In this document: in pieces, positions 355 to 58,756 of the stretch | How positions within the stretch are numbered: the first letter of the stretch is position 1 | Layout of the letters: each line of letters begins with the position of its first letter | Source: Hyaloperonospora brassicae | Taxonomy: Eukaryota; Oomycota; Peronosporomycetes; Peronosporales; Peronosporaceae | Assembly: GCA_947650285.1 (NCBI GenBank) | Contig: CANTFL010000445.1 | Span: 1-64,000 of the forward strand | Direction: 5' to 3' | Length of the DNA stretch: 64,000 bases | Made by a program: the position numbers and the translations under genes | The notes under the pieces: model-generated | What the model was told of the DNA's origin: nothing | The model's database searches: none | Seen by the model: the letters and a program-made list of their open reading frames with translations, nothing else

Positions 355-1005
355 TTACCTCGCCTTGAATCGATTCCGGCTTGCTCGATCACGATCACAT
401 TTCTGCGACATATCCACGCAATTTACATCTGCATCATCTATCCAAGTCGGGTCGCTAGAGCCTTTCCAATACTTCCCGACTGGACCGTGTACTCGCCCAA
501 CCCGTGGTTTTCGGCCAGATCGCACGTCTTCTGTTCTTTTCACTTCGAACTTATCATCCTCTCGACCTCCTTCCCAGCTATCGTCCGGCCACAATACCTT
601 ATCAAAGCCCACTCGATCAATCTCGTATACCGTCAAACAGATTATTGGCCGATTCTGAAACATCTTGACCTGCTTCAACTTCGAAACATGAACCATCGAG
701 AACAACCTGTATGGTTTACCATCAATATCCAGTCGTACGATATGATCTCCACATTTGACGGCCTCACGAAACGGTCCGTGCCACATATGGGCTAAACTTG
801 GTGCATATTCCTCCTTGAACCGATAGAGATAAGGCCGCAACTCCTCTTCACGACTAATCTGCAGTGGATTACGATCAGCATTATAGCGGTCGATCCCCAC
901 CGTATCGGTCTCTGGGGTCATCACGGTGGACTGTCCATGCTCTTCACTGTATCCCATATCGGTCTCTTTTTTATGATGGTGACTGATTTGTAGGATCAAC
1001 ATCAT
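355..1005 (-). CDS. Integrase C-terminal region plus chromodomain (E3)
   Basis: An intact 216-residue reading frame. The middle part aligns by eye with the integrase C-terminal region of E1 (25902-26282): 'LAHMWHGPFR', 'CGDHIVRLDIDGKPYRLF' and 'VHVSKLK' have direct counterparts there. The end carries a chromodomain-like stretch ('KYWKGSSDPTWIDDADV') matching 'VKWKGHPDLSWVDEVDL' of E1. No integrase core (HHCC or DDE) precedes it. In chromoviruses the chromodomain binds histone marks and steers integration, so an isolated copy could act as a targeting or chromatin-binding peptide; that is inference. The aromatic positions look weaker than in E1. The ATG used is the first in frame, but upstream open frame exists, so the true start is uncertain. 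Confidence 0.7.
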   Translation of the reverse strand: MMLILQISHHHKKETDMGYSEEHGQSTVMTPETDTVGIDRYNADRNPLQISREEELRPYLYRFKEEYAPSLAHMWHGPFREAVKCGDHIVRLDIDGKPYRLFSMVHVSKLKQVKMFQNRPIICLTVYEIDRVGFDKVLWPDDSWEGGREDDKFEVKRTEDVRSGRKPRVGRVHGPVGKYWKGSSDPTWIDDADVNCVDMSQKCDRDRASRNRFKAR

Positions 1006-1296
1006 AGAATTTCCCCACTTGATCGCTTTCCCCCTCCTGATTTAATATAAATCGGTAGGGTTCCACAGCGTCACAGCTCATAGCCTTGGTGGAATTGTAT
1101 CACAGTAGGAGACAGCATATCACCAATCACTCCAGGTAAGTCATTGTAAGTCCCTGTTATAGCTGCGTCTCCAAGCTGTCGATTGTCTCGTCCTTGTAAC
1201 ACACCATCACGAGTCGACATCCCGCCTGACTGACGTCTGGACTCTCCATGCACCGTATCACTATCGTCAGGGTCTCCGTCTTTAGTCGTGCTATCT
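1006..1296. other. Spacer between repeat ORF and chromodomain ORF of E3
   Basis: About 290 bases with only a short 60-residue open frame on the minus strand. The corresponding stretch of E4 (14385-14600) is partly in frame with the repeat ORF, so this is probably the decayed 3' part of that ORF. No RNA gene or other signal is visible. Confidence 0.4.
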
Positions 1297-2970
1297 TCAC
1301 ATACCGATCTGTCTTACTCCGATCGACGCTTGATTGATCTCCACCTTGCCCTGCGCTGGCGACCTCGCACCCTCGTTTCCCTTCGACAATCTCACGGTCG
1401 CAATCATTTTGAGTCCTTTGACCAGTTGGGAATGCTCTTCTTGCGACTCACCATCCTTGAACCCGATCCCGTCTGCCTGACAGCTGGACCGTTCTTGTAA
1501 CAGATCAGCTACCTCAGACTCGGTGTCTTCGGTCATAATCTCCCTTGTGGCGTCAACCTCTTGCTTCGGTCGGTCTTGTATCCACTCGACGCTTTTAATC
1601 TTCTTTTTAGTATCCACCACTGAAGGCATCTTCATACATTGTCGATGTCCACTTGTAGGGTGATCACCGCAGAAAAATCGGCGCCCCCAGTCCAGATCAG
1701 CTAGCAAATCGAGATATAATAACAGACCATTACACTCGTCTTCAACACCTTCGCGACCCTGATCCACGTGATCTTGATTCGCAATATACCTTTGACCACT
1801 AACTCGATCTTGATTGATAGAAAACTCAAACGATCCATCGGGTAAATGCGAAATCACTCCGCGATCTTGACAAGTCGAATACGGTGGTTCACCTTCGCGA
1901 TCTTCTCGATCTTCTCGATCTTGATCGACGGAAAACTCAAACGATCCATCATGTGAATGCAGGTCGTTTTCGCCATATCGATCTCCACTTGTAGGGTGAT
2001 CACCGCAGAGAAATCCACGCCCCCCGTCCAGATCAGCTTCGAGATCTTGATTTATACCATACGTTTGATGACTTTCTCGATCTTGATTGATAGAAAACTC
2101 AAACGATCCATCGGGTAAATGATAAATCAATCTGCGATCTTGACAAGTCGAATACGGTGGTTCACCTTCGCGATCTTCTCGATCTTCTCGATCTTGATCG
2201 ACGGAAAACTCAAACGATCCATCATGTGAATGCAGGTCGTTTCCGCCATATCGATCTCCACTTGTAGAGTGATCACCGCAGAGAAATCCACGCCCCCTGT
2301 CCAGATCAGCTTCGAGATCTTGATCTATACCATACGTTTGATGACTTTCTCGATCTTGATCGACAGAAAGACCAAACGATCCATCAGGTAAATGCGAAAT
2401 CACTTTGCGATCTTGACAGATCCAGTACTGCGAGTCACCTTCGGGATTTTGATCCGTAGAATTTCCTTGACCTCTTTCTCGATCTTGATCAATAGAAAGC
2501 GTAAACGGTCCATAGTGAGAAGGCGGATTCATTCCGCAGTCTCGATCTGTCAAATACTGTGTTTCATCATCGCGATCTTGACATGTCCAATGCTGTGGGT
2601 CATCTACATAATCTCGATTCATTACATAGGAGCGATCACTTTCTCGATCTTGATCAATATGACGTTGAACCGATCTATCGTGTGAAGGATGAACCACTCT
2701 TCGGTCTCGTTCCGTCAAATACTGTAGATCCTCTTCGCGATCTCGATCAGCAGAACTCTGAAACGATTCATCATGTGAGAGTATATCGACGACGGCATTC
2801 TCTTCTCCTGACGTAGATTTTATACTTTCTCCTCCCGTTTTAGCTTTAGAAATTCCAATGAGTAATAACTGCCGCTTCTCTCGCCGTTTCCACCGGATCA
2901 TCTTTTGGTCGTGGTCATTAACTTTATCGGTGTAACATAGTTGGCAGGATTCGCCGGAGATTTGATCCAT
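1297..2970 (-). CDS. Novel Asp/Arg/Gln-rich repeat protein of the short elements
   Basis: A 557-residue open frame starting with ATG. Most of it is built from degenerate repeats of about 35-38 residues that contain 'DQDRE', 'DRDRE', 'TCQDR' and 'DGSFEFS', arranged in a 91-residue higher-order unit (273 bp). Within the larger unit the string 'ADLDRGRGFLCGD' recurs; it resembles the second RNase H of E1 ('LLADLDRGRVILCGD'). Near the C-terminus 'ECNGLLLYLDLLADLDWGR' matches 'EYNGLLLCFELLADLDRGR' of E1 more fully. The ORF therefore seems to have grown by tandem duplication around a leftover of the RNase H domain. The C-terminal 150 residues are non-repetitive. Function unknown; composition suggests a disordered, charged protein. 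E4 has a broken copy (14350-16284) in which the frame is fused to the upstream capsid/post-protease region. Confidence 0.65.
   Translation of the reverse strand: MDQISGESCQLCYTDKVNDHDQKMIRWKRREKRQLLLIGISKAKTGGESIKSTSGEENAVVDILSHDESFQSSADRDREEDLQYLTERDRRVVHPSHDRSVQRHIDQDRESDRSYVMNRDYVDDPQHWTCQDRDDETQYLTDRDCGMNPPSHYGPFTLSIDQDRERGQGNSTDQNPEGDSQYWICQDRKVISHLPDGSFGLSVDQDRESHQTYGIDQDLEADLDRGRGFLCGDHSTSGDRYGGNDLHSHDGSFEFSVDQDREDREDREGEPPYSTCQDRRLIYHLPDGSFEFSINQDRESHQTYGINQDLEADLDGGRGFLCGDHPTSGDRYGENDLHSHDGSFEFSVDQDREDREDREGEPPYSTCQDRGVISHLPDGSFEFSINQDRVSGQRYIANQDHVDQGREGVEDECNGLLLYLDLLADLDWGRRFFCGDHPTSGHRQCMKMPSVVDTKKKIKSVEWIQDRPKQEVDATREIMTEDTESEVADLLQERSSCQADGIGFKDGESQEEHSQLVKGLKMIATVRLSKGNEGARSPAQGKVEINQASIGVRQIGM
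1800..2420 (-). repeat. 273-bp tandem repeat inside the E3 repeat ORF
   Basis: Near-identical blocks start at about 1921 and 2194 (period 273 bp, 91 codons), with a third partial block to about 2420. Each contains a run of 'cgatcttct' units, the GFLCGDH coding segment and the HDGSFEF coding segment. The period is a multiple of three, so the reading frame is preserved. Blocks differ by only a few substitutions, so the expansion is recent. Confidence 0.75.
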
Positions 2971-3690
2971 TCATTATCGGGCCACTTCCATTGTTCATCT
3001 GTAATATTTTCATACGCTAAGGTTTGGCACTCCTTATATCGGCCAGATCCATACAACACGTATCCTTGAGATCTTGGTGTTGTCTCGCCTTTCATCCACA
3101 TACCGAGTGTGGTATGTGGTGGTAACACGATCTTCTGATCACCAATATTCGTCACCTGCAGATATAACAGCTTGCCAGGGCCGTATCCTACTGTTGGCAC
3201 CCAATCCAGTCCTCGTGCGATCCACAACCTTGAGAACGCTTGACTAACACCGATCTTCACCTCCGTAGATTCTCCGACAGGGATCTCGATGGGTTGATCA
3301 GTAGCTTTTATCTTTTTCACCTTCGATTTATACGGTGGACGTTGTCCTAAGAAGATAATTGGATTCTCATCCGATTGTTTTCGTGAAAGGTAGTATTGTT
3401 GATCGACCGATTCTTCGTGTCCACAATACTCGAACAAGAATTCATCCACCAGTGCCTTCCAATCAAATTTTATCGATTCGTTCAGGTGAAGATACCAATA
3501 TCGGGCTGGAGCGGTGAGCAAATCACCAAACTCCAAACATTTTTCATCATCGGGTATTTGTTCTCGAGCAAAAGCCGATCTGGCCTTGCCGATCCAGCTC
3601 TGAGCGCAACCTTCGTCTCAACCTTTTCCTGAAAACTCTTCCAGACATGAGATCAAGGACGACCTTGGTTGTATGTCGATCTTGGCTTGC
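2898..3690 (-). pseudogene. Capsid fragment fused to post-protease domain (E3)
   Basis: From about 3690 down the frame encodes a Retrotrans_gag-type capsid fragment ('SWIGKARSAFAREQ', 'EFGDLLTAPARYWY', 'DEFLFEYCGHEE', 'QQYYLSRKQ'), equivalent to 31770-32010 of E1. After 'QRPPYKSKVKKIK' it continues directly with the domain that follows the protease in E1 ('PIEIPVGESTEVKIG', 'RLWIARGLDWVPTVGYGPGK', 'YLQVTNIGDQ'). Zinc knuckle and the catalytic DSG of the protease are missing, so an internal deletion of roughly 1.3 kb created the fusion. A small indel near 2910 shifts this frame relative to the repeat ORF; in E4 the two are in one frame. No good ATG starts it, and a TGA lies near 3650. Confidence 0.7.
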
Positions 3691-3818
3691 TCTTCAAAGG
3701 CTTCAATCCTGACCTTGCCGATCCTGTCCTTTAGAAACGATCCTCTAAATGGTCCCAGAGATATCCGACGAACGCTGATGGACCCATCTGACTCGATCTC
3801 GGAGTCAGCTGAGGCGTA

Positions 3819-4580: not shown

Positions 4581-4913
4581 ATGTTTGGCTTTCGCCGTTT
4601 TGATTTTCACCATTGGATTTTCATCCAGCAGATCGCTCTTTGCAGAGCGATCTGCGGTGGCCCCCTAAAGGGCCCTAGGAGGTATTTGAGGTTAATCTTC
4701 CAGATCGATCTCTCGATCTTCCTCTTTCATTTTCAATTCATCAGAGCCCCTTCCAAAACTCTGATGATCTGAGGATCTTGTGTTTCTGCGTGTCTGCGTC
4801 GATCCCTCTGTCGCTGACACTTCAATCCCAGGTTCTTGCTTGATCTTGACATCTTCACCAGTGGACTCACGGTGAAATCCAGAGGCCTCAGAAGATCCGG
4901 GCACGCGCACCAT
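4377..4913 (-). pseudogene. Gag N-terminus (E3), two in-frame stops
   Basis: Starts with ATG two bases inside the primer-binding site: 'MVRVPGSSEASGFHRESTGE', then an acidic/basic stretch ending 'EDREIDLED'. A TAA at 4692 replaces the AAA lysine codon of E1 and E2. After a frame change a second frame starts 'MVKIKTAKAKHNTLVSRSPD' and runs into the 96-bp repeats, stopping at TGA 4377. E4 carries both stops at the same positions (17753 and 17438), so they predate the split of the two copies. The stop-separated pieces could still be made as short peptides; more likely Gag is supplied in trans. Confidence 0.65.
4895..4912 (-). promoter_or_regulatory. Primer-binding site of E3
   Basis: Reading leftwards, one base after the LTR end (CCACA) comes TGGTGCGCGTGCCCGGAT. 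It begins with TGG, the complement of the tRNA CCA end, and its complement would form a plausible T-arm and acceptor 3' side. The identical site occurs at 17956-17973, 20406-20423 and 33484-33501. It overlaps the start of the Gag frame. The tRNA species was not identified. Confidence 0.65.
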
Positions 4914-6727
4914 TGTGATGAAGTCGATCTCACAAAATTTTTAATGAGTGTCAATCTTCCACTTGCCCAGACTTGCCGACTCACGGAGGGGGTACTCCGA
5001 TCCGTGCCTTGCTGTATAACCTTGTGCTCACCTTGTGTACCCGTCGGTTGGGCTGGCTTGAGCTCTTCGTAACGGCCTTGGGAGATGTCGATCTCGCTGA
5101 GAGGTTGGGTTGAGCGTTCGCTTCCGGTGCGGAAATCTTCACACCACGAACAGGATTCTGCGATCCTGATCTCGAGTCGCGGCGATCTCTATCTGGAAGC
5201 GTCGCGATCTCGATCTTGAATCACACCGACCTCGATTTGTCCTTGGGATCGGGGTCTTCGCTGTGCGGAAATCTTCACTCAGCAAATAGTTGTCTTGCGT
5301 CGATCTTGCGTTGGGATCGGTCCAATCTGGTCTCGAGATCGGCCAATCTTGCCGGAAGTGCGCAATGTGGGTGGATCGGTTGCTTGTTTCGCCAAAATGA
5401 AACGTGCCGATCTGCCCTGTAGATCGCTTCGGTCTTGCTCGGTCTTTTCTTGAACTCCTTGTCCAGATCTTCTGACCACTTGAGCTGCCTCGCGATCTTG
5501 TAACCAAAATCCTTTTCCTTCACCGTTGTTTGCTGCTACCCTAGCAGTTTGAGTTGAGTTGAGTTACCTTAACCCCACCTTGGCCAAACAATCCAAGGTG
5601 AGTACACGAAACACGGCGCGTGCGACGTCTCTTGATCGACGGGAGGCCAAATATCCTGCCCGGAAGAGAAGTCTGCGACGTGCTTTATATGTAAAAACGG
5701 TAACTGTTTTATTATCCAACCAAATTAATAGCCATCCTATACTTAAGCCTATTCCAAACTGTAGGTCACTCTCCAAACCGATATCACCTTTAAGCTTGAC
5801 CGCCCCCTTGAACACGTGTCGAAATTGTGTGACCTGTGCTCCAAAGATAGCGCCAATACTCCCGATATCGTACCTAGACACCAAAAAGAGTTAAAATTCC
5901 AAATGCGGTACCTAATACCCAATTTTGGTACCGAAAAGTCGAAAATAGTATTTAAATGCCGAATGTGTCTAAATCCATTTTGCGACGTCAATTCAACCGG
6001 CTTCCACTGTCTCTTTCGGTCTTAACTTTTGCGACATCACTCGTGGACTTTCAACAAGCATGCATATCACAATACAATAGCTCCATCATCGATATATCCA
6101 TAATCAGCAGGGAACATGACCGATCTGATGCCCAATTCGAGATCGTTGAGGATCGACACAGTGCGATCCGGCCCTATATGTTCTTCCGTTCGTTGTGCAT
6201 GGTCCGATACCATCCTCAAGGGTTTATCCGCACAATGGGACCATCCACAGTTCTCACAACGGTCCAACGGACCTCCGCGAACATCCGCACTTCCAGATCG
6301 GGCCATAATTAACCTAAATCAGTACTCCCATTGGAGATCGGTGATGTGTATCTTCGATCACCTGGATGCTACACCTTTGTCACAGAGTTACGTCGCATCG
6401 CTTGGTCTCAGAAGTACCTTTCTCAGTTCAGATCGGTCTTCTGGTTCAATATAGTCCCTCGTCCCAGATTGCACCGTGGAAATCATCGATGTCTGCGACT
6501 CGTCCCAGATTGTTCCAAGGAAAGCACCCCTTTCTGCGCCTCTTCTCAGACCATTCCACGTCCATCCTTCGATCGACCGTTGGATCGGTCCGTCGATCTC
6601 CGTGGGATCACCTTCCGCCTCTCATCGGATCGCCAGATCACTTGGTGCCATTTTTCACCAGTACGTGGCGCCTCAATAAGACGGCCACCGATCCATATCA
6701 TAAATTTTGATTACTGACTTTGCCACA
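4914..6727 (-). mobile_element. 5' LTR of E3 (about 1.81 kb)
   Basis: Reading leftwards it starts TGTGGCAAAGTC and ends GATCGACTTCATCACA, so it has TG...CA ends and an imperfect inverted repeat of the first bases. It is nearly identical to the solo LTR at 11732-13547. Contains the hairpin CTGCTACCCTAGCAG at about 5533 and a TATAAAG-like box near 5690 on the minus strand. The right flank GGTG is the same site at which the solo LTR entered E4. Confidence 0.85.
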
Positions 6728-9006: not shown

Positions 9007-10822
9007 TGTGGTGAAGTCGATCTCACAAAACTACTTTAGTGAATGTCGATCTTCAACTTGTTCAGACTTGCCGACTCACGGAGCGGGTACTCCGATCCGT
9101 GCCTTGCTGTATAACCTTGTGCTTACCTTGTGTACCCTCGGTTGGGCTGGCTTGAGCTCTTCGTAAAAGCCTTGGAAGATGTCGATCTCGCTGAGAGGTT
9201 GGGTTGAGCGTTCGCTTCCGGTGCGGAAATCTTCACACCACGAACAGGATTCTGCGATCCTGATCTCGAGTCGCGGCGATCTCTATCTGGAAGCGTCGCG
9301 ATCTCGATCTTGAATCACACCGATCTCGATTTGTCCTTGGGATCGGGGTCTTCGCTGTGCGGAAATCTTCACTCAGCAAATAGTTGTCTTGCGTCGATCT
9401 TGCGTTGGGATCGGTCCGATCTGGTCTCGAGATCGGCCAATCTTGCCGGAAGTGCGCAATGTGGGTGGATCGGTTGCTTGTTTCGCCAAAATGAAACGTG
9501 CCGATCTGCCCTGTAGATCGCTTCGGTCTTGCTCGGTCTTGCATTGAACTCCTTGTCCAGATCTTCTGACCACTTGATCCGTCTCGCGATCTTGTAACCA
9601 AAATCCTTTTCCTTTACCGTTGTTTGCTGCTACCCTAGCAGTTTGAGTTGGGTTGAGTTACCTTAACCCCACCTTGGCCAAACAATCGAAGGTGAGTACA
9701 CGAAACACGGCGCGTGCGACGTCTCTTGATCGACGGGAGGCAAAATATCCTGTCCGGAAGAGAAGTCTGCGACGTCCTTTATATGTAAAAACGGTAACTG
9801 TTTTATTATCCGACCAAATTAATAGCCATCCTATACTTAAGCCTATTCCAAACTGTAGGTCACTCTCCAAACCGATATCACCTTTAAGCTTGACCGCCCC
9901 CTTGAACACGTGTCGAAATTGTGTGACCTGTAATCCAAAGATAGCGCCCGTACTTCCGATATCGTACCTAGACACCAAAAAGGAGTCAAATTCCAAATGC
10001 GGTACCAAATACCCAATTTTGGGTACCGAAAAGTCGAAAATAGTATTTAAATGCCGAATGTGTCTAGATCCACTTTGCGACGTCAATTCAACCGGCTTCC
10101 ACTGTCTCTTTCGGTCTTAACTTTTGCGACATCACTCGTGGACCTTCAACAAGCATGCATATCACAATACAATAGCTCCATCATCGATATATCCATAATC
10201 AGCAGGGAACATGACCGATCTGATGCCCAATTCGAGATCGTTGAGGATCGACACAGTGCGATCCGGCCCTATATGTTCTTCCGTTCGTTGTGCATGGTCC
10301 GATACCATCCTCAAGGGTTTATCCGCACAATGGGACCATCCACAGTTCTCACAACGGTCCAACGGACCTCCGCGAACATCCGCACTTCCAGATCGGGCCA
10401 TAATTAACCTAAATCAGTACTCCCATTGGAGATCGGTGATGTGTATCTTCGATCACCTGGATGCTACACCTTTGTCACAGAGTTACGTCGCATCGCTTGG
10501 TCTCAGACGTACCTTTCTCAGTTCAGATCGGTCTTCTGGTTCAATATAGTCCCTCGTCCCAGATTGCACCGTGGAAATCATCGATGTCTGCGACTCGTCC
10601 CAGATTGTTCCAAGAAAAGCACCCCTTTCTGCGCCTCTTCTCAGACCATTCCACGTCCATCCTTCGATCGACCGTTGGATCGGTCCGTCGATCTCCGTGC
10701 GATCATCTTCCGTCTTTCATTGGATCACCAGATCACTTGGTGTCATTTTTCACCAGTACGTGGCGCCTCAATAAGACGGCCACCGATCCATATCATAAAT
10801 TTTGATTAATGACTTTGCCACA
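9007..10822 (-). mobile_element. 3' LTR of E4 (1816 bp)
   Basis: Plus-strand reading starts TGTGGTGAAGTCGATC and ends GACTTTGCCACA, followed at once by the complement of the polypurine tract (ACCGCCCCCTGT). Same length as the E4 5' LTR and the solo LTR. Confidence 0.85.
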
Positions 10823-11731
10823 ACCGCCCCCTGTACTGAAGTCCGTTTGGGCAGCAATCGGCTACAGTCCAGTTACTCATCAACTTCGTTCCAAGCACTG
10901 TAGCCCATCCCATAACCTCCCCGACGCGTCTCCCCACTTTGCCAGTACCCACGGAGTGTTCTACCGCACTTTTGGCGCCGGATCGCGATCTGTCACCCAG
11001 ATCGGCCGATCCAGACGAGCATATTCCCATAGTGCCAGATCGGCCGGGGTCCCCAAGTCCTCTTGGTCCGACCAGATCGCCATTGATCGTCACGGGATCG
11101 ACAGATCGACGGCCAACCGGACCTTCATCTCCATCCCGAGACATGTTGTCTAGATCGCCAGATCCCGTGAGGTATACTCCAATAGTCCCAGATCGACCTG
11201 GGTCTCCAAGTGATCTTGGTCCGGCCGAATCGACACCTTTCTCCAGGGGATCACCAGATCGACTACCCACCGGGCCTTCGTCTCCTGCTTACGATCTGTA
11301 GACCAGAGCGCCAGATCACGGGAGGTATAATCGAATAGTCCCAGATCGATCCATATCTCCACTTTTCCCTACAGACGACCGGATCGACAGCCTGAGTTGA
11401 GCCCATCCCATTCTTCACCAGATCGATAGTTACTTGGGCTCCACTAATATCTCCATTCAATCGACCTGGATCGCCAGATCATCACTCTCGGCTTAGATCG
11501 CTATTCGTTTGAAAAAGATCGTTCGATCATTCTGCTTTACCTGGATCGTCGGTCTTAGTAGATTTCGAAAATGATAGTAGATCAGATTTCATTATCATCG
11601 CTCGTCACATCTTTTATCGTTGTATCACCATGCCAAATCAATCTCGCTCTCCATCAACTAATTGTTAATTCAGTTTCATACTCATATACGAACAGCTCAT
11701 TCCTCCGGCATGTACTACCTCTAAGTACACC
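10823..11731 (-). mobile_element. 3' internal end of E4 with antisense VPDR-repeat frame
   Basis: Contains the polypurine tract next to the LTR (10823-10835). On the plus strand, opposite to the element, 10939-11301 is open for 120 residues with two copies of a repeat of about 37 residues ('IPIVPDRPGSPSPLGP', 'TPIVPDRPGSPSDLGP', each ending 'PTGPSSP'). It corresponds to the start of the large antisense ORF of E1 (22596 onward, 'YAPIVPDRHESPSD'). The ATG present in E1 is ATA here, so the E4 copy has lost its start. Confidence 0.65.
11728..11731. other. Target site duplication, left copy (CACC)
   Basis: CACC precedes the solo LTR and is repeated at 13548-13551. The uninterrupted site is seen at 165-180 of E3 (agtaCACCcttcaaac), which confirms a clean 4-bp duplication. 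Confidence 0.9.
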
Positions 11732-13547
11732 TGTGGCAAAGTCAGTAATCAAAATTTATGATATGGATCGGTGGCCGTCTTATTGAGGCGCCACGTACTG
11801 GTGAAAAATGGCACCAAGTGATCTGGCGATCCGATGAGAGGCGGAAGGTGATCCCACGGAGATCGACGGACCGATCCAACGGTCGACCGAAGGATGGACG
11901 TGGAATGGTCTGAGAAGAGGCGCAGAAAGGGGTGCTTTTCTTGGAACAATCTGGGACGAGTCGCAGACATCGATGATTTCCACGGTGCAATCTGGGACGA
12001 GGGACTATATTGAACCAGAAGACCGATCTGAACTGAGAAAGGTACTTCTGAGACCAAGCGATGCGACGTAACTCTGTGACAAAGGTGTAGCATCCAGGTG
12101 ATCGAAGATACACATCACCGATCTCCAATGGGAGTACTGATTTAGGTTAATTATGGCCCGATCTGGAAGTGCGGATGTTCGTGGAGGTCCGTTGGACCGT
12201 TTTGAGAACTGTGGATGGTCCCATTGTGCGGATAAACCCTTGAGGATGGTATCGGACCATGCACAACGAACGGAAGAACATATAGGGCCGGATCGCACTG
12301 TGTCGATCCTCAACGATCTCGAATTGGGCATCAGATCGGTCATGTTCCCTGCTGATTATGGATATATCGATGATGGAGCTATTGTATTGTGATATGCATG
12401 CTTGTTGAAAGTCCATGAGTGATGTCGCAAAAGTTAAGACCGAAAGAGACAGTGGAAGCCGGTTGAATTGACGTCGCAAAATGGATTTAGACACATTCGG
12501 CATTTAAATACTATTTTCGACTTTTCGGTACCAAAATTGGGTATTAGGTACCGCATTTGGAATTTGCTCCCTTTTTGGTGTCTAGGTACGATATCGGGAG
12601 TATTGGCGCTATCTTTGGAGCACAGGTCACACAATTTCGACACGTGTTCAAGGGGGCGGTCAAGCTTAAAGGTGATATCGGTTTGGAGAGTGACCTACAG
12701 TTTGGAATAGGCTTAAGTATAGGATGGCTATTAATTTGGTTGGATAATAAAACAGTTACCGTTTTTACATATAAAGCACGTCGCAGACTTCTCTTCCGGG
12801 CAGGATATTTGGCCTCCCGTCGATCAAGAGACGTCGCACGCGCCGTGTTTCGTGTACTCACCTTGGATTGTTTGGCCAAGGTGGGGTTAAGGTAACTCAA
12901 CTCAACTCAAACTGCTAGGGTAGCAGCAAACAACGGTAAAGGAAAAGGATTTTGGTTACAAGATCGCGAGGCAGCTCAAGTGGTCAGAAGATCTGGACAA
13001 GGAGTTCAAGACAAGACCGAGCAAGACCGAAGCGATCTACAGGGCAGATCGGCACGTTTCATTTTGGCGAAACAAGCAACCGATCCGCCCACATTGCGCA
13101 CTTCCGGCAAGATCGGCCGATCCCAAGACCAGATCGGACCGATCCCAACGCAAGATCGACGCAAGACAACTATTTGCTGAGTGAAGATTTCCGCACAGCG
13201 AAGACCCCGATCCCGAAGACAAATCGAGATCGGTGTGATTCAAGATCGAGATCGCGACATCGCCCAAGAGTGACTGCCGCGACTCAAGATCAAGATCGCA
13301 GAACCCCGTTCGTGGTGTGAAGATTTCCGCACCGGAAGCGAACGCTCAACCCAACCTCTCAGCGAGATCGACATCTCCCAAGGCCGTTACGAAGAGCTCA
13401 AGCCAGCCCAACCGACGGGTACACAAGGTAAGCACAAGGTTATACAGCAAGGCACGGATCGGAGTACCCCCTCCGTGAGTCGGCAAGTCTGGGCAAGTGG
13501 AAGATTGACACTCACTAAAAAAATTTTGTGAGATCGACTTCACCACA
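11732..13547 (+). mobile_element. Solo LTR inserted in E4 (1816 bp)
   Basis: Plus orientation, TGTGGCAAAGTC to GATCGACTTCACCACA, flanked by CACC on both sides. No internal sequence is attached, so it is the product of LTR-LTR recombination of a full element. A TATAAAG box lies at 12770-12776 and an AATAAA at 12745-12750. The hairpin CTGCTACCCTAGCAG (as its complement) is at about 12912-12926. Confidence 0.9.
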
Positions 13548-13551
13548 CACC

Positions 13552-13743
13552 CTTCAAACCCATTCTACCAGCATATGCTACCTCCTAGCTCACCCTTCAA
13601 CCGATATCCTCCGCCACATACAGCCTCCCGGCATGTGCTTTCACCGCCTTACAGCCATGTGCAACCTCCTTGCATACTTCAACCAAACCTAACCTCCAGA
13701 TCGGTGTTAGACCCTTGATGCAGCTTCTTCTAATTGCCTCACC
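13552..13743 (-). other. 3' untranslated segment of E4
   Basis: Continues the E4 internal sequence interrupted by the solo LTR and matches 171-364 of the window. Contains the hairpin-type motif GCTACCTCCTAGC. No gene seen. Confidence 0.6.
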
Positions 13744-14384
13744 TTGAATCGATTATGGCTTGCTCGACCACGGTCACATTTCTGCGACATATCCACGCAA
13801 TTTACATCTGCATCATCTATCCAAGTCGGATCGCTGGAGCCTTTCCAACACTTCCCGACCGGACAGTGTACTCGTCCAACCCGTGGTTTTCAGCTAGATT
13901 GCACGTCTTCTGTTCTTTTCACTTCAAACGTATCATCCTCTCGACATCCTTCCCAGCTATCGTCCGGCCACAATACCTCATCAAAGTCCACTCGACTAAT
14001 CTCGTATACCGTCAAACAGATTATTGGTCGATCCTGAAACATCTTGACCTGCTTCAACTTCGAAACATGAACCATCGAGAACAACCTGTATGGTTTACCA
14101 TCAATATCCAGTCGTACGATATGATCTCCACATTTGACGGCCTCACGAAACGGTCCGCGCCACATATGGGCTAAACTTGGTGCATATTCCTCCTTGAATC
14201 GATAGAGATAAGGCCGCAACTCCTCTTCACGACTAATCTGCAGTGGATTACGATCAGCATTATAGCGGTCGATCCCCACCGTATCGGTCTCTGGGGTCAT
14301 CACGGTGGACCGTCCATGCTCTTCACCGTATCCCATATCGGTCTCTTTTTTATGATAGTGACTGATAGGGTTCCACAGCGTCAC
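13744..14384 (-). pseudogene. Integrase C-terminus and chromodomain (E4), broken
   Basis: Counterpart of 355-1005. Residues 'LAHMWRGPFREAVKCGDHIV' and 'PYRLFSMVHVSKLKQVKMF' are kept. A TAG at 13890 ends the frame before the chromodomain, and the remaining chromodomain-like sequence lies downstream in the same region. So the long product seen in E3 cannot be made from this copy. Confidence 0.6.
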
Positions 14385-16284
14385 AGATCATGGCCTTAGT
14401 GGAATTGATCACAGTAGGATACAGCATATCGCCAATCACTCCAGGTAAGTCATTGTAAGTCCCTGTTATGGCTGCATCTCCAAGCTGTCGATTGTCTCGT
14501 CCTTGTGACACACCATCACGAGTCGACATCCCGCCTGACTTACGTATGCAATCTCCATGCACCGTATCAGTATCGTCAGGGTCTCCGTCTTTATTCGTGC
14601 TATCTTCACATACCGATTGTCTTACTCCGATCGACGCTTGATTGATCTCCACCTTTCCCTGCGCTGGCGACCTCGCACCCTCGTTTCCCTTCGACAATCT
14701 CACGGTCGCAATCATTTTGAGTCCTCTGACCAGTTGGGAATGCTCTTCTTGCGACTCACCATCCTTGAACCCGATCCCGTCTGCCTGACAGCTGGACCGT
14801 TCTTGTAACAGATCAGCTACCTCAGACTCGGTGTCTTCGTTGATAATCTCCCTTGTGGCGTCAACCTCTTGCTTCGGTCGGTCTTGTATCCACTCGACTC
14901 TTTTAATCTTCTTTTTAGTATCCACCACTGAAGGCATCTTCATGCATTGTCGATGTCCACTTGTAGGGTGATCAACGCATAAAAATCCGCGCCCCCAGTC
15001 CAGATCATCTAGCAAATCGAGATATAATAACAGACCATTACACTCGTCTTCAACACCTTCGCGACCTTGACACACGTGATCTTGATCCGTAATATATTTT
15101 TGACCACTAACTCGATCTTAATTGATAAAAAAACTCAAACGATCCATCGTGTGAATGCAGGTCATTTTCGCCATATCGATCTCCACTTGTGGAGTGGTTT
15201 CCGCAGGAAAAACTACGCCCCTGTATAGATCAGCTTCAAGATCTTGATCCATACAATACGTTTGATGACTTTCTCGATCTAGATCGATAGAAAGCTCAAA
15301 CGATCCATCGGGTAAATGCGAAATCACTTCGCGATCTTGACAAGTCGAAAACGGTGATTCACCTTCGCGATCTTCCCGATCTTGATCGACAGAAAGTTCA
15401 AACGATCCATCACGTGATTACAGATCGTTTTCGCCATATCCATCTCCACTTGTAGAGTGATCGCCGCAGAGAAATCCACGCCCCCTGTCCAGATCAACTT
15501 CGAGATCTTGATCCATACAATACGTTTGATGACTTTCTCGATCTTGATCGATAGAAAGCGTAAACGATCCATAGTGATAAGGCGGATTCACATCGCAGTC
15601 TTGATCTATCGAGTACTGTGTATCATCATCGCGATCTTGACATGTCCAATACTGTGGGTCATATGCATAATCTAGATTCATTACATAGGAGCGATCACTT
15701 TCTCGATCTTGATCAATATGACGTTGAACCGATCTATCGTGTGAAGGATGAACCACTATTCGGTCTATTTCCGTCAAATACTGTAGATCCTCTTCGCGAT
15801 CTCGATCAGCAGAACTCTGAAACGATTCATCATGTGAGAGTATATCGACGACGTCATTCTCTTCTCCTGACGTAGATTTTATACTTTCTCCTCCCGTTTT
15901 AGCTTTAAAATTCCAATGAGTAATAACTGCCGCTTCTCTCGCCGTTTCCACCGGATCATCTTTTAATCGTGGCATTAACTTTATCGGTGTAACATAGTTG
16001 GCAGGATTCGCCGGAGATTCGATCCATTCATTATCGGGCCACTTCCATTGTTCACCTGTAATATTTTCATACGCTAAGGTTTGGCACTCCTTATATCGGC
16101 CAGATCCATACAACACGTATCCTTGAGATCTTGGTGTTGTCTCGCCTTTCATCCACATACCGAGTGTGGTATGTGGTGGTAACACGATCTTCTGATCACC
16201 AATATTCGTCACCTGCAGATATAACAGCTTGCCAGGGCCGTATCCTACTGTTGGCACCCAATCCAGTCCTCGCGCAATCCACAA
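14350..16284 (-). pseudogene. Repeat ORF of E4, fused to post-protease domain, broken
   Basis: From 16284 the frame encodes the post-protease domain ('MWIARGLDWVPTVGYGPGK', 'YLQVTNIGDQKIVLPPHTTL') and continues without interruption into the acidic/basic repeats ('SADRDREEDLQYLTE', 'HIDQDRESDRSYV', 'SIDQDRESHQTY'), stopping at 15418. Further repeats are open in other frames at 15324-15572 and 15118-15327, and the non-repetitive C-terminal part at 14350-15075. It shows that the ancestral product was a single capsid/post-protease/repeat polyprotein. Fewer 273-bp units are present than in E3. Confidence 0.6.
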
Positions 16285-16300
16285 CCTTGAGAACGCTTGA

Positions 16301-16740
16301 CTAATACCGACCGATCTTCACCTCCGTAGATTCTCCAACAGGGATCTCGATGGGTTGATCAGTAGCTTTTATCTTTTTCACCTTCGATTTACACGTTGAA
16401 CGTTGTCCTGAAAAGCGAATTGGATTCTCATCCGGTTGCTTTCGTGAAAGGTAGTACTGTTGATTGACAAATTCTTCGTGTCCACAATATTCGAACAAGA
16501 ATTCATCCACCAGCGCCTTCCAATCAAATCGTATCGATGCGTTTAGTTGAAGATACCAATATCGGGCTGGAGCGGTGATCAAATCACCGAACACCAAACA
16601 TTTTTCTGCATCGGGTATTTGTTCTCGAGCAAAATCCGATCTGGCCTTGCCGATCCAGCTCTGAGCGCAACCTTCGTCTCAACCTTTTCCTGAAAACTCT
16701 TCCAGACATGAGATCAAGGACGACCTTGGTTGTATGTCGA
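16301..16740 (-). pseudogene. Capsid fragment (E4)
   Basis: Encodes 'VFGDLITAPARYWYLQLNAS', 'DEFLFEYCGHEEFVNQQYYL' and then 'IEIPVGESTEVKIG', as in E3. A small insertion near 16305 shifts it out of frame with the post-protease domain at 16284. Confidence 0.6.
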
Positions 16741-16879
16741 TCTTGGCTTGCTCTTCAAAGGCTTCAATCCTGACCTTGCCGATCCTGTCCTTTAGAAACG
16801 ATCCTCCAAATGGTCCCAGAGATATCCGACGAACGCTGATGGACCCATCTGACTCGATCTCGGAGTCAGCTGAGGCGTA

Positions 16880-17374
16880 TTAAGGCGATCCTGAGGGTTG
16901 TTCTTGAGGTGATCCCAAAGGTATGACGATCCCGTCTCTAGGAGTGGTGGTCTTGCCCACCAGAAGTATCGTGACCTCCACGAACTCGCTTACTGCGTTC
17001 TTCAGCTGTTCCAAGCTGCATCCCATCAATTCATCTGTATCGAAAGCATTAGGGCAGAATCCCGTGTCATTCAACATCTGCAAAATCAAATCAATCGCGC
17101 CGAGTTTGCTAGTCACGGGCGGCGGGATAGAGATCGGCTTACCCAGAGGGCCGATCCACTTGGGCCGTAATATCTTGAACACTGGGTCTGTCTTGAGCAG
17201 TGTCTTGAAGTGGCTATAATAGCACTGCCATTTCACACGCTCCCACATTTGAGTCACCGACTCAATCTTCGACACCGCGATCAGGTCCATCTTACGATCA
17301 TATTCTTCTTTGACTACGATCTCCGATCCGATTGGCTTTCCGATTAGATGATCTTCGCCATTCGATCCCAGCAC
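16880..17374 (-). CDS. Gag middle region (E4)
   Basis: 164-residue frame almost identical to 3819-4313 (one visible change, DSDEL to DTDEL). In the same frame as the basic repeats upstream, from which it is separated by the TGA at 17438. Confidence 0.6.
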   Translation of the reverse strand: MLGSNGEDHLIGKPIGSEIVVKEEYDRKMDLIAVSKIESVTQMWERVKWQCYYSHFKTLLKTDPVFKILRPKWIGPLGKPISIPPPVTSKLGAIDLILQMLNDTGFCPNAFDTDELMGCSLEQLKNAVSEFVEVTILLVGKTTTPRDGIVIPLGSPQEQPSGSP

Positions 17375-17641
17375 TTTCTTCTTCTTTCGTGCCGATCCGG
17401 CGGGTTTCTTGGCCGTCTCCCTCGTGTTAGTGTCTGGTCACCTGCTGACGAGAGTATTCGATCCCGGCACATTCTTCTTCTTTCGTGCCGATCCGGCGGG
17501 TTTCTTGGCCGTCTTTCTCGTGTTAGTGTCTGGTGACCTGCTGACGAGAGTATTCGATCCCGACACTTTCTTCTTCTTTCGTTCCGATCCAGCCAACTTC
17601 TTCCTCGTATTAATGTCAGGTGACCTGCTGACGAGGGTATT
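17363..17641 (-). repeat. 96-bp tandem repeat, three copies (E4)
   Basis: Same three-copy array as at 4302-4580, encoding the RKKK-containing Gag segment. Confidence 0.85.
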
Positions 17642-17974
17642 ATGTTTGGCTTTCGCCGTTTTGATTTTCACCATTGGATTTTCATCCAGCAGATCGCTCT
17701 TTGCAGAGCGATCTGCGGTGGCCCCTGAAAGGGCCCTAGGAGGTATTTGAGGTTAATCTTCCAGATCGATCTCTCGATCTTCCTCTTTCATTTTCAATTC
17801 ATCAGAGCCCCTTCCAAAACTCTGATGATCTGAGGATCTTGTGTTTCTGCATGTCTGCGTCGATCCCTCTGTCGCTGACACTTCAATCCCAGGTTCTTGC
17901 TTGATCTTGACATCTTCGCCAGTGGACTCACGGTGAAATCCAGAGGCCTCAGAAGATCCGGGCACGCGCACCAT
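17438..17974 (-). pseudogene. Gag N-terminus (E4), two in-frame stops
   Basis: Starts at ATG 17974 directly after the LTR ('MVRVPGSSEASGFHRESTGE'). TAA at 17753 and TGA at 17438 are shared with E3. The primer-binding site occupies 17956-17973. Confidence 0.65.
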
Positions 17975-19790
17975 TGTGGTGAAGTCGATCTCACAAAATT
18001 ATTTTAGTGAATGTCGATCTTCCACTTGCCCAGACTTGCCGACTCACGGAGCGGGTACTCCGATCCGTGCCTTGTTGTACGACCTTGTGCTCACCTTGTG
18101 TACCCTCGGTTGGGCTGGCGTGAGGTTTTCGTAAAGGCCTTGGGAGATGTCGATCTCGCTGAGAGGTTGGGTTGAGCGTTCGCTTCCGGTGCGGAAATTT
18201 TCACACCACGAACAGGATTCTGCGATCCTGATCTCGAGTCGCGGCGATCTCTATCTGGAAGCGTCGCGATCTCGATCTTGAATCACACCGATCTCGATTC
18301 GTCTTCGGGATCGGGGTCTTTGCTGAGCGGAAATCTTCACTCAGCAAATAGTAGTCTTGCGTTGATTTTGCGTTGGGATCAGTCCGATCTGGTCTTGGGA
18401 TCGGCCGATCTTGCCGGAAGTGCGCAATGTGGGCGAATCGGTTGCTTGTTTCGCCAAAATGAAACGTGCCGATATGTCCAGTAGATCGCTTCGAGCTTGC
18501 TCGGTCTTGTCTTGAACTCCTTGTCCAGATCTTCTGACCACTTGATCCGTCTCGCGATCTTGTAACCAAAATCCTTTTCCTTTACCGTTGTTTGCTGCTA
18601 CCCTAGCAGTTTGAGTTGAGTTGAGTTACCTTAACCCCACCTTGGCCAAACAATCCAAGGTGAGTACACGAAACACGGCGCGTGCGACGTCTCTTGATCG
18701 ACGGGAGGCCAAATATCCTGTCCGGAAGAGAAGTCTGCGACGTCCTTTATATGTAAAAACGGTAACTGTTTTATTATCCGACCAAATTAATAGCCATCCT
18801 ATACTTAAGCCTATTCCAAACTGTAGGTCACTCTCCAAACCGATATCACCTTTAGGCTTGACCGCCCCCTTGAACACGTGTCGAAATCTCGTGACCTGTA
18901 CTCCAAAGATAGCGCCCATACTTCCGATATCGTACCTAGACACCAAAAAGGGACCAAATTCCAAATGCGGTACCAAATGCCCAATTTTGGGTACCGAAAA
19001 GTCGAAAATAGTATTTAAATGCCGAATGTGTCTAGATCCACTTTGCGACGTCAATTCAACCGGCTTCCACTGGCTCTTTCGGTCTTAACTTTTGCGACAT
19101 CACTCATGGGCCTTCATCAAGCATGCATATCACAATACGATAGCTCCATCATCGATATATCCATAATCAGCAGGGAACATGACCGATCTGATGCCCAATT
19201 CGAGATCGTTGAGGCTCGACACAGTGCGATCCGGCCCTATATGTTCTTCCGTTCGTTGTACATGGTCCGATACCATCCTCAAGGGTTTATCCGCACAATG
19301 GGACCATCCACAGTTCTCACAACGGTCCCACGGACCTCCGCGAACATCCACACTTCCAGATCGGGCTATACTTAACCAAAATCAGTACTCTCATTGGAAA
19401 TCGGTGATGTATATCTTCGATCACCTGGATGCTACACCTTTGTCACAGAGTCACGTCGCATCGCTTGGTCTCATACGTACCTTTCTCAGTTCAGATCGGT
19501 CGTGTGGTTCAATCTAGTCCCTCGTCCCAGATCGCAACGTGGAAATCATCTATGTCTGCAACTCGTCCCAGATTGCTCCAAGGAAAGCACCCCTTTCTGC
19601 GCCTCTTCTCAGACCGTTCCACGTCCATCCTTCGGTCGACCGTTGGATCGGTCCGTCGATCTCCGTGGGATCACCTTCCGTCTCTCATTGGATCGCCAGA
19701 TCACTTGGTGTCATTTTTCACCAGTACGTGGCGCCTCAATTAGATGGCCACCGATCCATATCATAAATTTTGATTACTGACATTGCCACA
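17975..19790 (-). mobile_element. 5' LTR of E4 (1816 bp), probably shared with E2
   Basis: Plus-strand reading TGTGGTGAAGTCGATC to TGACATTGCCACA. At 19791 the sequence turns into the reverse complement of the first 610 bases of the same LTR. The part from the hairpin at 18595-18609 to 19790 may therefore belong to the rearranged LTR of E2 as well. Confidence 0.75.
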
Positions 19791-20714: not shown

Positions 20715-22507
20715 TGTGGTGAAGTCGATCTCACAAAACTACTTTAGTGAATGTCGATCTTCCACTTGCCCAGACTTGCCGACTCACGGAGCGGGTACTC
20801 CGATCCGTGCATTGCTGTATAGCCTTGTGCTCACCTTGTGTACCCGTCGGTTGGGCTGGCTTGAGCTCTTCGTAACACCCTTGGAAGATGTCGATCTCGC
20901 TGAGAGTTTGGGGTTGAGAGTTCGCTTCCGGTGCGGAAATCTTCACATCACGAACGGGGCTTCTGCGATCTTGATCTTGAGTCGCGGCGATCTCTATCTG
21001 GAAGCGTCGCAATCTCGATCTTGAATCGCACCGATCTCGATCTGTCTTCGGGATCGGGGTCTTTTCTGTGCGGAAATCTTCGCTCAGAAAAGAATAGTCT
21101 TGCGTCGATCTTGCGTTGGTATCGGTCCGATCTGGTCTCGGGATCGGCCGATCTTGCCGGAAGTGCGCAATGTGGGTGGATCGGTTGCTTGTTTCGCCAA
21201 AATGAAACACGCCGATATGTCCAGTAGATCGCTTCGATCTTGCTCGGTCTTGTCTTGAACGCCTTGTCCAGATCTTCTGACCACTTGATCCGTCTCGCGA
21301 TCGTGTGTCCAATGTCCTTATCCTTTTCTATGTGTTGCTGCTACCCTAGCAGCTGAGTTGAGTGTGAGTACTTGATCGATCCGGGCTAGATATCCCGAGA
21401 TCGCTCTTCTCGATCTTGGCCAACAATCCAAGATCGGCCTTATGTGTCCCTGGAACACGCGTGCCTTGACCCGCCGGGGAAGCCAAATCAATCTTGCCCG
21501 GAGAAGAGGGGAGGGGAACGTGCGTCGTGAGCAGAAGATGTAGAGTTCAAGTCTGTTTATTAACCAACCAAATTAATAGCCATCCTATACTTAAGCCTAT
21601 TCCCAACCGTAGGTCACTCTCCAAACTGATATCACCTTTAAGCTTGACCGCCCTCTTGAACACGTGTCGAAATTTCGTGACCTGTACTCCAAAGATAGCG
21701 TCGATATCCCCGATATCGTACCTAGACACCAAAATGGACCAAATTCAAAATATGGTACCAAATACCCAATTGTGGTACCCAAAAGTCCAAAATAGTATCC
21801 AAATGCGGAATGTGTCCAGATCCATTTTGCGACGTCAATTCAACCGGCTTCCACTGGCTCTTTCGGTCTTAACTTTTGGGACATCACTCATGGATCTTTA
21901 ACAAGCATTTACATCATCATACAATAGTCTCCGTCATCGATATATCCATAACCAGCAGGGAACCTGACCGATCTGATGTCCAATTCGAGATCGTTGAGGA
22001 TCGACACAGTACAATCCGGCCATATACGTTCTTCCGTTCATTGTGTGTACTCCGATACCATCCTCCCAAGGTTTATTCGCTCAATGGGACCATCCACAAT
22101 TCTTACAACGATCCCACGGACTCCCACAAACATCCCCACTTCCAGATCGGGCTATACTTAACCTAAATCAGTACTCCCTTTGGGAGACCCGTAGAGAGTG
22201 TTATCGGTCTGCAGGATGTTACACCTTCGCCACAGAGTCACTTTACATCACCTGGTCCCAGATACTTGTCCCAGATCGCTCCATGGAAATCGTTCTAACT
22301 GTCGTCTTGTCCCAGATCACCCCGTCTCAGATCGTTCCCCACACATCAGTCTGACGACAGTTGGATCGGATCGCCGATCCCGTTTAGATCGCCTTCCGTC
22401 TCCTTATTGGATCGCCATATCCCATGGCCTCCTTTTCCACCAGTAAGTGGCGTCCCCAATGTGTATCCACCCATCCTCGCACAAAATTTGATAGTAACTT
22501 CACCACA
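20715..22507 (-). mobile_element. 3' LTR of E1 (1793 bp)
   Basis: TGTGGTGAAGTCGATC to ACTTCACCACA on the plus strand. It pairs with 33503-35293; a short comparison shows mostly single-base differences. The R-side subtype (about 21370-21570, with a Gln-free 'gtctgtttattaacc' stretch) differs from that of E3/E4. Confidence 0.9.
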
Positions 22508-22520
22508 ACCGCCCCCTGTA
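22508..22520 (-). promoter_or_regulatory. Polypurine tract of E1
   Basis: Minus-strand CAGGGGGCGGT lies directly before the 3' LTR start TGTGGTG. Same sequence at 10823-10835 (E4) and 7625-7636. Confidence 0.6.
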
Positions 22521-22595
22521 CTGAAGTCCATTGTACAGCAATTGACCTCAGTGCAGTCACTTATCAACTTCGCTCCAACCACTCAAGTCCATCTC

Positions 22596-25375: not shown

Positions 25376-25676
25376 TTCAAGATCGGTGTCCAAGCCCGAT
25401 CGTCTTTCATAATCGTGTAATTTATTCGATCATCGTCTCTTTTTCTGGGTACTTCATTCTTTACAACTTCCACGACCTCGATCCTTATCGCTCCACATCA
25501 TTCAGTAAGGTAATTCACGTGACTATCTCCATACTCATACACAAAAACACCATCCATCAGCCTGTGCTACCTCCCAGCACATCTTGCAACCGCATCCACC
25601 AGCATGTGCTACCGCCTAGCACATCTTTCAACCCCTCCATCCGCATATGCTACCTCCCGCATACTTGTTCGAACTG
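25376..25676. repeat. Convergent spacer of E1 with an array of hairpins
   Basis: Lies between the ends of the antisense ORF and the chromodomain. Contains three inverted repeats with nearly constant loops: TGTGCT/AGCACA at 25563-25581, TGTGCTA/TAGCACA at 25605-25623 and TATGC/GCATA at 25646-25663, set in repeats of about 40 bp ('catccaccagcatgtgctacc'). Related hairpins with changed but still paired stems occur in E3 (152-170). Confidence 0.65.
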
Positions 25677-26300
25677 TTAAGGTGCGTCCGACTTGCCTTC
25701 GTGAGAGTGCATCGCTTCGAAACGGTTTCGACTCACTCGGTTCCGCTCAAACTCATGCAAGATCGCCCCACAACTCAGATCGACCTCATCCACCCAACTT
25801 AAATCGGGATGTCCCTTCCACTTCACCAGAACCTGTCGGTGTACTCGCCCATGACGGGTTTTCCTACCAGATCGCACGTCCAATATTTCCTCTACTTCGT
25901 ATTACCCCTCTTCAAGATCGCCCTCCCAACTTTCTTTTGGCAGCAAAGCTTCATCAAAGTCCAAACGATCTGCTTCGTCTATCGTAAGCTGATCCTTCGG
26001 CCGTTCAGGGAACGTTTTTACCTTCTTCAGCTTCGATAAATGTACAATCGGAAATAGCCGATACGGAGTTCCAGCGATCTCCAATTTCACAGCGTGATCC
26101 CCACATATGTCCGCAACTCGGAACGGCCCATGCCACATATGCGCTAGCTTCTTCGCATATCCCTCTTTAACTCGGTCCAGGTATAGCCAAACTTGCGTTC
26201 CCACTTCGATCTCGTATTGTTCCAATTCTTCATTATGTCGATCTGCCCTCTCTTGGATCGCAGCTCGTAGTTGATCGTTCACTGCGGATCGAGCTCGCTG
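25677..26300 (-). pseudogene. Integrase C-terminus and chromodomain (E1)
   Basis: Integrase C-terminal region 26282-25902 ('QVWLYLDRVKEGYAKKLAHM', 'PYRLFPIVHLSKLKKV', 'RLDFDEALLPKESWEGDLEE') followed, after a frame change near 25890, by a chromodomain at 25883-25677 ('RQVLVKWKGHPDLSWVDEVD'). The conserved VKWKG and W positions of chromodomains are present. In Ty3/Gypsy chromoviruses this domain directs integration to chromatin carrying particular histone marks. Confidence 0.75.
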
Positions 26301-26303
26301 ATA

Positions 26304-29070: not shown

Positions 29071-29108
29071 TTACAATACCCAAGATCCAATGGCCATATC
29101 AACGAGCA

Positions 29109-58690: not shown

Positions 58691-58756
58691 ATCCCTCTCG
58701 CCTACCCGGCCCAAAAAGCACTTTTTTCGTCCATCCACGTCCCCGCCCCCGCCATC

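What the first reader, a model, noticed from the sequence alone, without database searches (positions are those of the whole stretch)
1297..2970. New charged repeat protein in short Gypsy elements, apparently grown from an RNase H fragment
In E3 and E4 the protease-RT-integrase core is gone. In its place is an ORF (557 codons, unbroken in E3) of 'DQDRE'-type repeats in which the string 'ADLDRGRGFLCGD' recurs. E1 has 'LLADLDRGRVILCGD' in its second RNase H, and E3 keeps a longer match ('ECNGLLLYLDLLADLDWGR') after the repeats. The 273-bp period keeps the frame. So a parasite element seems to have made a new protein from a piece of its parent's polymerase. That the frame stays open in E3 through many repeats suggests selection or very recent expansion.
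Basis: partly seen in the sequence, partly recalled or inferred. Interest (0 to 1): 0.78.

Follow-up and report, generated by a model that had tools for sequence, protein, structure and literature searches.

The report
Pol-less Gypsy element with repeat polyprotein
The 557-codon repeat ORF is a broken piece of a longer Gag-derived polyprotein in a retrotransposon family that has lost its enzymes; one real scrap of a polymerase RNase H lies inside it, stop codons seem to have been kept out as the family spread, but its amino-acid sequence is only weakly constrained.

Summary
E3 and E4 belong to a non-autonomous Gypsy family (45 places aligned here, plus one metagenome relative at 66% identity). 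They are colinear with the enzyme-bearing element E1 but lack the zinc knuckle, protease core, RT, both complete RNase H domains and the integrase core. The RNase H match is genuine: an 82-bp remnant of the second RNase H in its ancestral position, a 14-codon piece of which recurs in the 273-bp units. The 557-codon ORF did not grow from it. It is a fragment, cut by a small indel near each end, of one Gag–linker–repeat–integrase-tail frame that is 1402, 1543 and 1794 codons long in three other copies. Omega is 0.7–0.9, against 0.1–0.3 for E1 pol. Yet stop codons are scarce among variants shared by four or more copy clusters (1 of 171, singletons 58 of 891), so openness seems kept although amino acids hardly are; one of five control frames shows a milder deficit. 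Leader, LTR ends and 3' primer region match E1, so mobilisation in trans is likely. New variant of a known kind: a pol-less passenger LTR element.

The parts
1297..2970 (-). 557-codon ORF of E3: fragment of the family's long frame (about the first 38 and the last few codons out of frame)
1803..2418 (-). 273-bp tandem units, 2.3 copies, 95% match
2272..2313 (-). first in-repeat copy of the RNase H piece (EADLDRGRGFLCGD)
1999..2040 (-). second in-repeat copy of the RNase H piece (EADLDGGRGFLCGD)
1663..1744 (-). RNase H remnant (EDECNGLLLYLDLLADLDWGRRFFCGD), colinear with E1 27669-27750
2898..3617 (-). Gag capsid part joined to the stretch that follows the protease in E1 (zinc knuckle and protease core missing)
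355..1041 (-). integrase-tail region of E3
4599..4913 (-). 5' leader with primer-site position and the ATG directly after the LTR; 92.4% identical to E1
4914..6727 (-). E3 5' LTR, 85.0% identical to the E1 5' LTR; a 3' LTR was not seen (contig starts at window base 1)
9007..19790 (-). E4: 5' LTR 17975-19790, 3' LTR 9007-10822 (95.3% identical)
14350..16317 (-). E4 homologue of the ORF, broken into frames 15418-16317 and 14350-15117; repeats 15135-15638
11732..13547 (+). solo LTR in opposite orientation inside E4, flanked by CACC on both sides
20715..35293 (-). E1, enzyme-bearing relative and candidate helper type: LTRs 20715-22507 and 33503-35293 (96.2%), RT ORF 27775-29070, RNase H/integrase ORF 26304-27797

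Best explanation
E3 and E4 are copies of a non-autonomous Ty3/Gypsy family that descends from a dual-RNase-H (Chronos-like) oomycete element of the E1 kind. Shown: large losses in the polyprotein gene left, in the original order, leader, Gag capsid part, stretch after the protease, a short RNase H remnant and the integrase tail. Between them lies a fast-changing charged stretch that grows and shrinks in units which mostly keep the frame, and a piece of the RNase H remnant recurs in the units. Inferred: RNA of these copies is packaged, reverse transcribed and integrated by E1-type proteins in trans, since leader, LTR ends and 3' primer region match. Inferred: the long frame is translated, and openness is favoured during spread (stop codons kept out), while amino-acid sequence matters little, as for a disordered spacer, or because translation itself protects or routes the RNA. 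E3 itself is a decaying copy.
For: Colinearity with E1 in seven blocks. Post-protease stretch and RNase H remnant. The family frame is one open frame of 1794 (C532), 1543 (C853) and 1402 (C890) codons. 132 genome matches, a lower bound: 78 of 501 candidates were scored. Leader start and LTR ends shared by E3, E4 and E1, 3' primer region by E4 and E1. Repeat zone 75-1029 bp, a multiple of 3 in 26 of 34 places measured. Stops, with the doubled capsid segment counted once: variants in 4 or more clusters 1 of 171, 3 or more 6 of 297, singletons 58 of 891 (Fisher p 0.0004 and 0.002); in the part outside gag 0 of 135 and 4 of 234 against 40 of 687 (p 0.001 and 0.012). Open 732-residue relative P0002.
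Against: Omega over all copies is 0.8-0.9, and omega 1 is not rejected in three of four regions. Stops shared by three or more clusters exist, one of them by six, so broken copies have been multiplied too. The stop test was devised after seeing the data and is not strong in every version: leaving out the other capsid segment gives p 0.036 for 3 or more clusters. Of five control frames, reverse frame 1 also shows a deficit (6 of 284 against 46 of 850, p 0.02; 4 of 166, p 0.12, at 4 or more) with a similar fall in the nonsynonymous ratio, and frame+2 shows an unexplained stop excess (29 of 272 against 42 of 818). Frame-keeping unit lengths may follow from recombination between in-phase sub-repeats. 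No transcript or peptide data.
Confidence: 0.58

Rival explanations
1. Pure passenger: the ORF is an unselected relic. It looks intact only because the master copy was open when the young copies spread.
For: Omega 0.8-0.9; singletons S/N/stop 144/407/33 against 149.6/404.6/29.8 expected; in E1 controls omega is 0.1-0.15 and 0.3, with omega 1 worse by 72 and 67 log units. 28 stop states shared by two or more copies, some of them counted twice through the doubled capsid segment. One control frame shows a milder stop deficit too.
Against: Stop deficit among widely shared variants, also outside gag alone; open 732-residue relative at 66% identity; omega about 0.7, 2dlnL 5.6 against omega 1, in eight close copies.
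Confidence: 0.31
2. One reading: a new functional charged protein born from an RNase H fragment, kept by amino-acid selection.
For: Real RNase H homology; recurrence of the piece in the repeats; long frames; relative in another sample.
Against: The remnant is about 27 codons of frames 1402-1794 codons long and in its ancestral place; weak amino-acid constraint; charge-altering changes not depleted among shared variants, Fisher p 0.88.
Confidence: 0.06
3. Selection acts on DNA, not protein: the elements keep a dense GATC pattern, and the D-Q/D-R repeats are its translation.
For: GATC 31.7 per kb in the ORF, 18.2 in the E3 LTR, 15.2 in E1 pol, 4.5 in the PDI-like gene, 3.5-3.8 expected; 41 of 53 sites in phase 0. 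Variants inside GATC: 75 of 908 singletons, 13 of 338 shared by 3 or more clusters, p 0.006.
Against: One of six motifs tested; the same sites encode Asp, so protein and DNA effects are not separated; still held the doubled capsid segment; does not explain the stop deficit.
Confidence: 0.05

Closest known systems
Chronos Ty3/Gypsy elements of Peronosporales and Pythiales (Ustyantsev et al. 2017, PMC5348765; abstract and section 5 read)
   Same: E1 has RT, Gypsy RNase H, a second RVT_3-type RNase H and integrase; an E1-type copy also shows a weak Tf2-1 SH3 match; several listed pol relatives in Peronospora and Phytophthora carry PF13456 and some PF00385 (120 of 566 listed).
   Different: E3/E4 lost all enzymes. 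The chromodomain was not seen in the E1-type DNA scanned, which may not reach it.
Pol-less Athila families of Arabidopsis (PMC2410132; passages)
   Same: Whole families without pol, moved in trans, with retained ORFs.
   Different: The passages report purifying selection on Gag and Env ORFs; here amino-acid constraint is weak and only stops look depleted.
Wheat RLG_Sabrina, RLG_WHAM and non-autonomous Angela (PMC9744471; passages)
   Same: Long co-evolution with autonomous partners; similar primer site and LTR ends are criteria for partners there, and are met here with E1.
   Different: The passages say Sabrina and WHAM lack coding sequence for RT and INT and non-autonomous Angela has degenerate CDS; here a frame of 1402-1794 codons survives in some copies.
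TR-GAG elements
   Same: LTR elements that keep a Gag frame without pol (recalled; the term was seen only in a search listing).
   Different: This frame lacks the zinc knuckle and runs on through repeats to the integrase tail.
Ogre-derived satellites of Lathyrus (PMC7004042; passages)
   Same: Tandem repeats inside a Gypsy element with archaeal-type RNase H, also in non-autonomous copies, grown into long arrays.
   Different: There the passages place them downstream of gag-pol, in the 3' untranslated region; here the arrays come from inside the frame.

Membership tests
Ty3/Gypsy LTR retrotransposon | direct LTRs with primer sites | tested here: met
   E4 LTRs 95.3% identical, E1 96.2%; leader start and 3' primer region shared by E4 and E1. 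E3's 3' end was not seen.
Ty3/Gypsy LTR retrotransposon | pol order RT-RNase H-integrase | tested here: not met
   Met by E1; no pol family matched in the E3/E4 ORFs or in the C532 frame. E3/E4 are therefore filed as non-autonomous derivatives only.
Chronos | second, archaeal-type RNase H after the Gypsy RNase H | tested here: inconclusive
   A second RNase H (RVT_3) is present in E1 and in L046 in one frame; its archaeal subtype was not tested by a tree.
Chronos | chromodomain after the integrase | tested here: inconclusive
   Only SH3_Tf2-1 below its cut-off in L046; some relatives list PF00385.
Pol-less passenger LTR element moved in trans | shares primer sites and LTR ends with an enzyme-bearing element of the same genome | tested here: met
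Pol-less passenger LTR element moved in trans | mobilised by that element's proteins | not testable with these tools
   needs transposition or packaging data
Functional RNase H | complete domain | tested here: not met
   About 27 residues remain; no RNase H family matched.

The most novel reading that the evidence does not exclude
A retrotransposon lineage that must stay translatable but need not keep its protein sequence: selection removes stop codons from a charged, repeat-built polyprotein frame of 1402-1794 codons while amino acids drift almost freely. Translation itself (RNA protection or packaging), or a sequence-blind disordered protein, would be the trait under selection.
Probability: 0.22. 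Interest if true: 0.68.

Novelty: new variant of a known kind. Interest (0 to 1): 0.42.

Why it matters
It gives a testable case of how enzyme-less retroelements persist: frame openness and amino-acid constraint can be measured apart in one family, with its likely helper type alongside as control. It also shows satellite-like arrays that start at a polymerase scrap inside a coding frame.

Tried and rejected
Rejected: 'new gene from RNase H' (see rivals). Rejected: selection shown by the 557-codon ORF alone, since its ends are accidents. Not found: a closer enzyme-bearing parent in this genome. For the integrase tail, matches at 66-76% have frames of 97-384 codons and were not examined further, and E1-type copies with frames of 1000 codons or more match at 52-55% (150 of 923 candidates scored). 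First reading of 11732-13547 as E4's 3' LTR was wrong and was corrected. The stop test went through versions: the first ones were biased because the open reference can never carry a stop; with minor states only, the results weakened from p 0.0005 to 0.004 (3 or more clusters) and from 0.00002 to 0.0005 (4 or more); then I found that the reference's doubled capsid segment had counted some copies twice, and one search leaves out one or the other copy. Because's control frame I lowered the best explanation from 0.62 to 0.58 and raised the passenger rival to 0.31. Simple pN/pS did not separate the true frame from wrong frames well. The search with the long frame gave 8 proteins; I read three, which are zinc-knuckle Gag proteins without these repeats. 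Papers: PMC5348765 abstract and section 5; PMC6211444, PMC7004042, PMC9744471, PMC2410132 passages; the rest only as listings. In the listings I saw no description of this family; those listings are partial.

Full report
What is there. The window starts contig C236 of a 100.56 Mb, 898-contig assembly. The ORF 1297-2970(-) is real, 557 codons, with 273-bp units at 1803-2418. The RNase H/integrase ORF of the neighbouring enzyme-bearing element E1 has its best named relatives in Peronospora and Phytophthora, 90% identity over 90% in Peronospora matthiolae at the top, and a Peronospora destructor Gag protein begins with the same 30 residues as E3's leader frame. The host is therefore an oomycete close to Peronospora by inference; its species was not tested.

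Anatomy. E4 runs from 9007 to 19790 with direct LTRs 95.3% identical and a solo LTR of opposite orientation inside. E3 has the 5' LTR 4914-6727; its 3' end was not seen. E1 runs from 20715 to 35293 and has RT, RNase H, a second RVT_3-type RNase H and integrase. E3's internal part matches E1's in seven blocks in the same order: leader 92.4%, gag 62%, 73% and 61%, stretch after the protease 65%, RNase H remnant 68% over 82 bp, integrase tail 63%. Missing from E3 relative to E1 are the stretches that hold the zinc knuckle and protease core, RT with the first RNase H, and most of the second RNase H with the integrase core.

The RNase H claim. Protein alignment of the E3 ORF with E1's ORF scores 89 against a maximum of 66 in 400 shuffles; restricted to the part after the repeats the shuffled maximum is 45; an in-repeat unit scores 61 against 43. 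DNA alignments also exceed all 300 shuffles, 38 against 31 and 36 against 29. So the homology is real. In one family member the remnant reads LLADLDRGRGFLCGDH, nearly the wording of the repeats (L036), which fits exchange of the piece between remnant and repeats. RNase H function is unlikely: about 27 residues remain and Pfam finds nothing.

The ORF is a fragment. In C532, C853 and C890 one frame of 1794, 1543 and 1402 codons spans the homologous region. In E3 about the first 38 codons and the last few are out of that frame (inferred). In E3, E4 and E1 an ATG stands directly after the 5' LTR.

How many copies. The own-genome search with the E3 ORF gave 132 matches, 78 of 501 candidates scored, so a lower bound; many are array units. 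The integrase tail of the E3 kind (79% identity or more) gave 46 matches, seven of them in one array (150 of 923 candidates scored). I aligned 45 places. Outside this genome one relative of the repeat ORF was found among the 7,996 candidates scored: P0002, 732 residues from a metagenome, 66% identity over 33% of the ORF, with its own RNase H remnant and duplication.

Selection. Four regions, 28, 26, 34 and 17 copies: the likelihood peaks at omega 0.9, 0.8, 0.9 and 0.9 on a grid; 2dlnL against omega 1 is 0.9 (gag), 4.2 (linker), 2.9 (C-terminal part) and 0.7 (integrase tail), nominally significant only in the linker. Eight close copies give omega about 0.7, 2dlnL 5.6; five of them with long frames give 0.6-0.7 and do not reject 1. 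Controls by the same method: ten E1 RNase H/integrase ORFs, omega 0.1-0.15, omega 1 worse by 72 log units; E1 and twenty older E1 RNase H copies, best grid value 0.3, omega 1 worse by 67. Those older control copies diverge 6-16% from E1, much as many E3-family copies do from E3, so age alone does not explain the difference.

Stops. Counting only minor states in 40 clusters of near-identical copies and each capsid segment once: singletons carry 58 stops in 891 variants (42.9 expected), variants in 3 or more clusters 6 of 297 (14.3 expected, Fisher p 0.002 against singletons), in 4 or more 1 of 171 (8.2 expected, p 0.0004). Leaving out the other capsid segment gives 7 of 292 against 47 of 860 (p 0.036) and 1 of 161 (p 0.004). 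Outside gag it is 4 of 234 and 0 of 135 against 40 of 687 (p 0.012 and 0.001). Before this correction two other reference copies agreed with the first. The nonsynonymous-to-synonymous ratio relative to neutral falls only from 1.14 to 0.86 and 0.75. Control frames: frame+1, reverse 0 and reverse 2 show no clear deficit; reverse 1 shows one at 3 or more clusters (6 of 284 against 46 of 850, p 0.02; p 0.12 at 4 or more) and a similar ratio fall; frame+2 shows an excess (29 of 272). The test was devised after seeing the data. I take the open-frame signal as suggestive, not proven.

Frame of the repeat zone. Distance between two flanking probes could be measured in 34 of 35 places tried and ranges from 75 to 1029 bp; 26 of 34 are multiples of 3, and 15 of 22 distinct lengths (counted from its list). 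Sub-repeats in phase could produce this without selection.

Mobility. Leader start and LTR ends agree among E3, E4 and E1, the 3' primer region between E4 and E1, and the leader is the most similar part; the E3 and E1 5' LTRs are 85% alike. This meets two of five criteria that wheat workers used for partners (PMC9744471, passages). The transfer in trans itself is inferred.

Arrays. The stretch from the RNase H remnant onwards forms a 690-bp array on C869 (about 36 units by spacing, frame 8180 codons) and 558-bp arrays on C375 and C62. The long frame on C869 needs no selection: many units score the same and 690 is a multiple of 3. A 3.63-kb repeat carrying the integrase tail lies on C384. Satellites from tandem repeats of Ogre Gypsy elements are known in plants (PMC7004042, passages).

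GATC. The element stretches measured hold 15-32 GATC per kb against 4.5-4.7 in two other stretches of the window, and 41 of 53 in the ORF are in phase 0, where they give Asp followed by another residue. Much of the 'DQDRE' look follows from this. Phytophthora has adenine methyltransferases whose in vitro assay reads GATC, and 6mA peaks lie partly in LTR elements (PMC6211444, passages); a link is a guess.

Verdict. Real feature, ordinary in kind, unusual in detail; the new-gene reading is not supported, the open-frame reading is suggestive and testable.

Noticed in passing
window 1297-6727, 26304-29070, 33503-35293: GATC is four to eight and a half times over expectation in LTRs, pol and the repeat ORF, but near expectation in the two other stretches measured.
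   Followed up: partly
G000:C869:126379-150726, C375:59730-86104, C62:290-14962 (L031, L069-L072): Long tandem arrays (690 and 558 bp) grown from the RNase H remnant region of this family.
   Followed up: partly
G000:C384:1902-24090 (L081): Seven copies of the integrase tail at about 3.63-kb spacing.
   Followed up: no
L002, L005: The Gag capsid part and a roughly 100-codon C-terminal stretch are each present twice in tandem in C853 and C532.
   Followed up: no
window 4599-4913 and 33188-33502: Leader 92.4% identical between E3 and E1 although the LTRs are 85% and the other blocks 61-73%: exchange or a packaging signal.
   Followed up: no
window 11732-13547: Solo LTR with CACC on both sides inside E4; E3's 5' LTR (98.0% identical) and its outer flank repeat the same sequence inverted.
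   Followed up: partly
window 56429-57238: ORF with a signal-peptide-like start and an RxLR-like string (motif recalled, no family search done).
   Followed up: no
window 58580-60319: Protein-disulphide-isomerase-like ORF with two CGHC sites (read, name recalled, no family search done).
   Followed up: no
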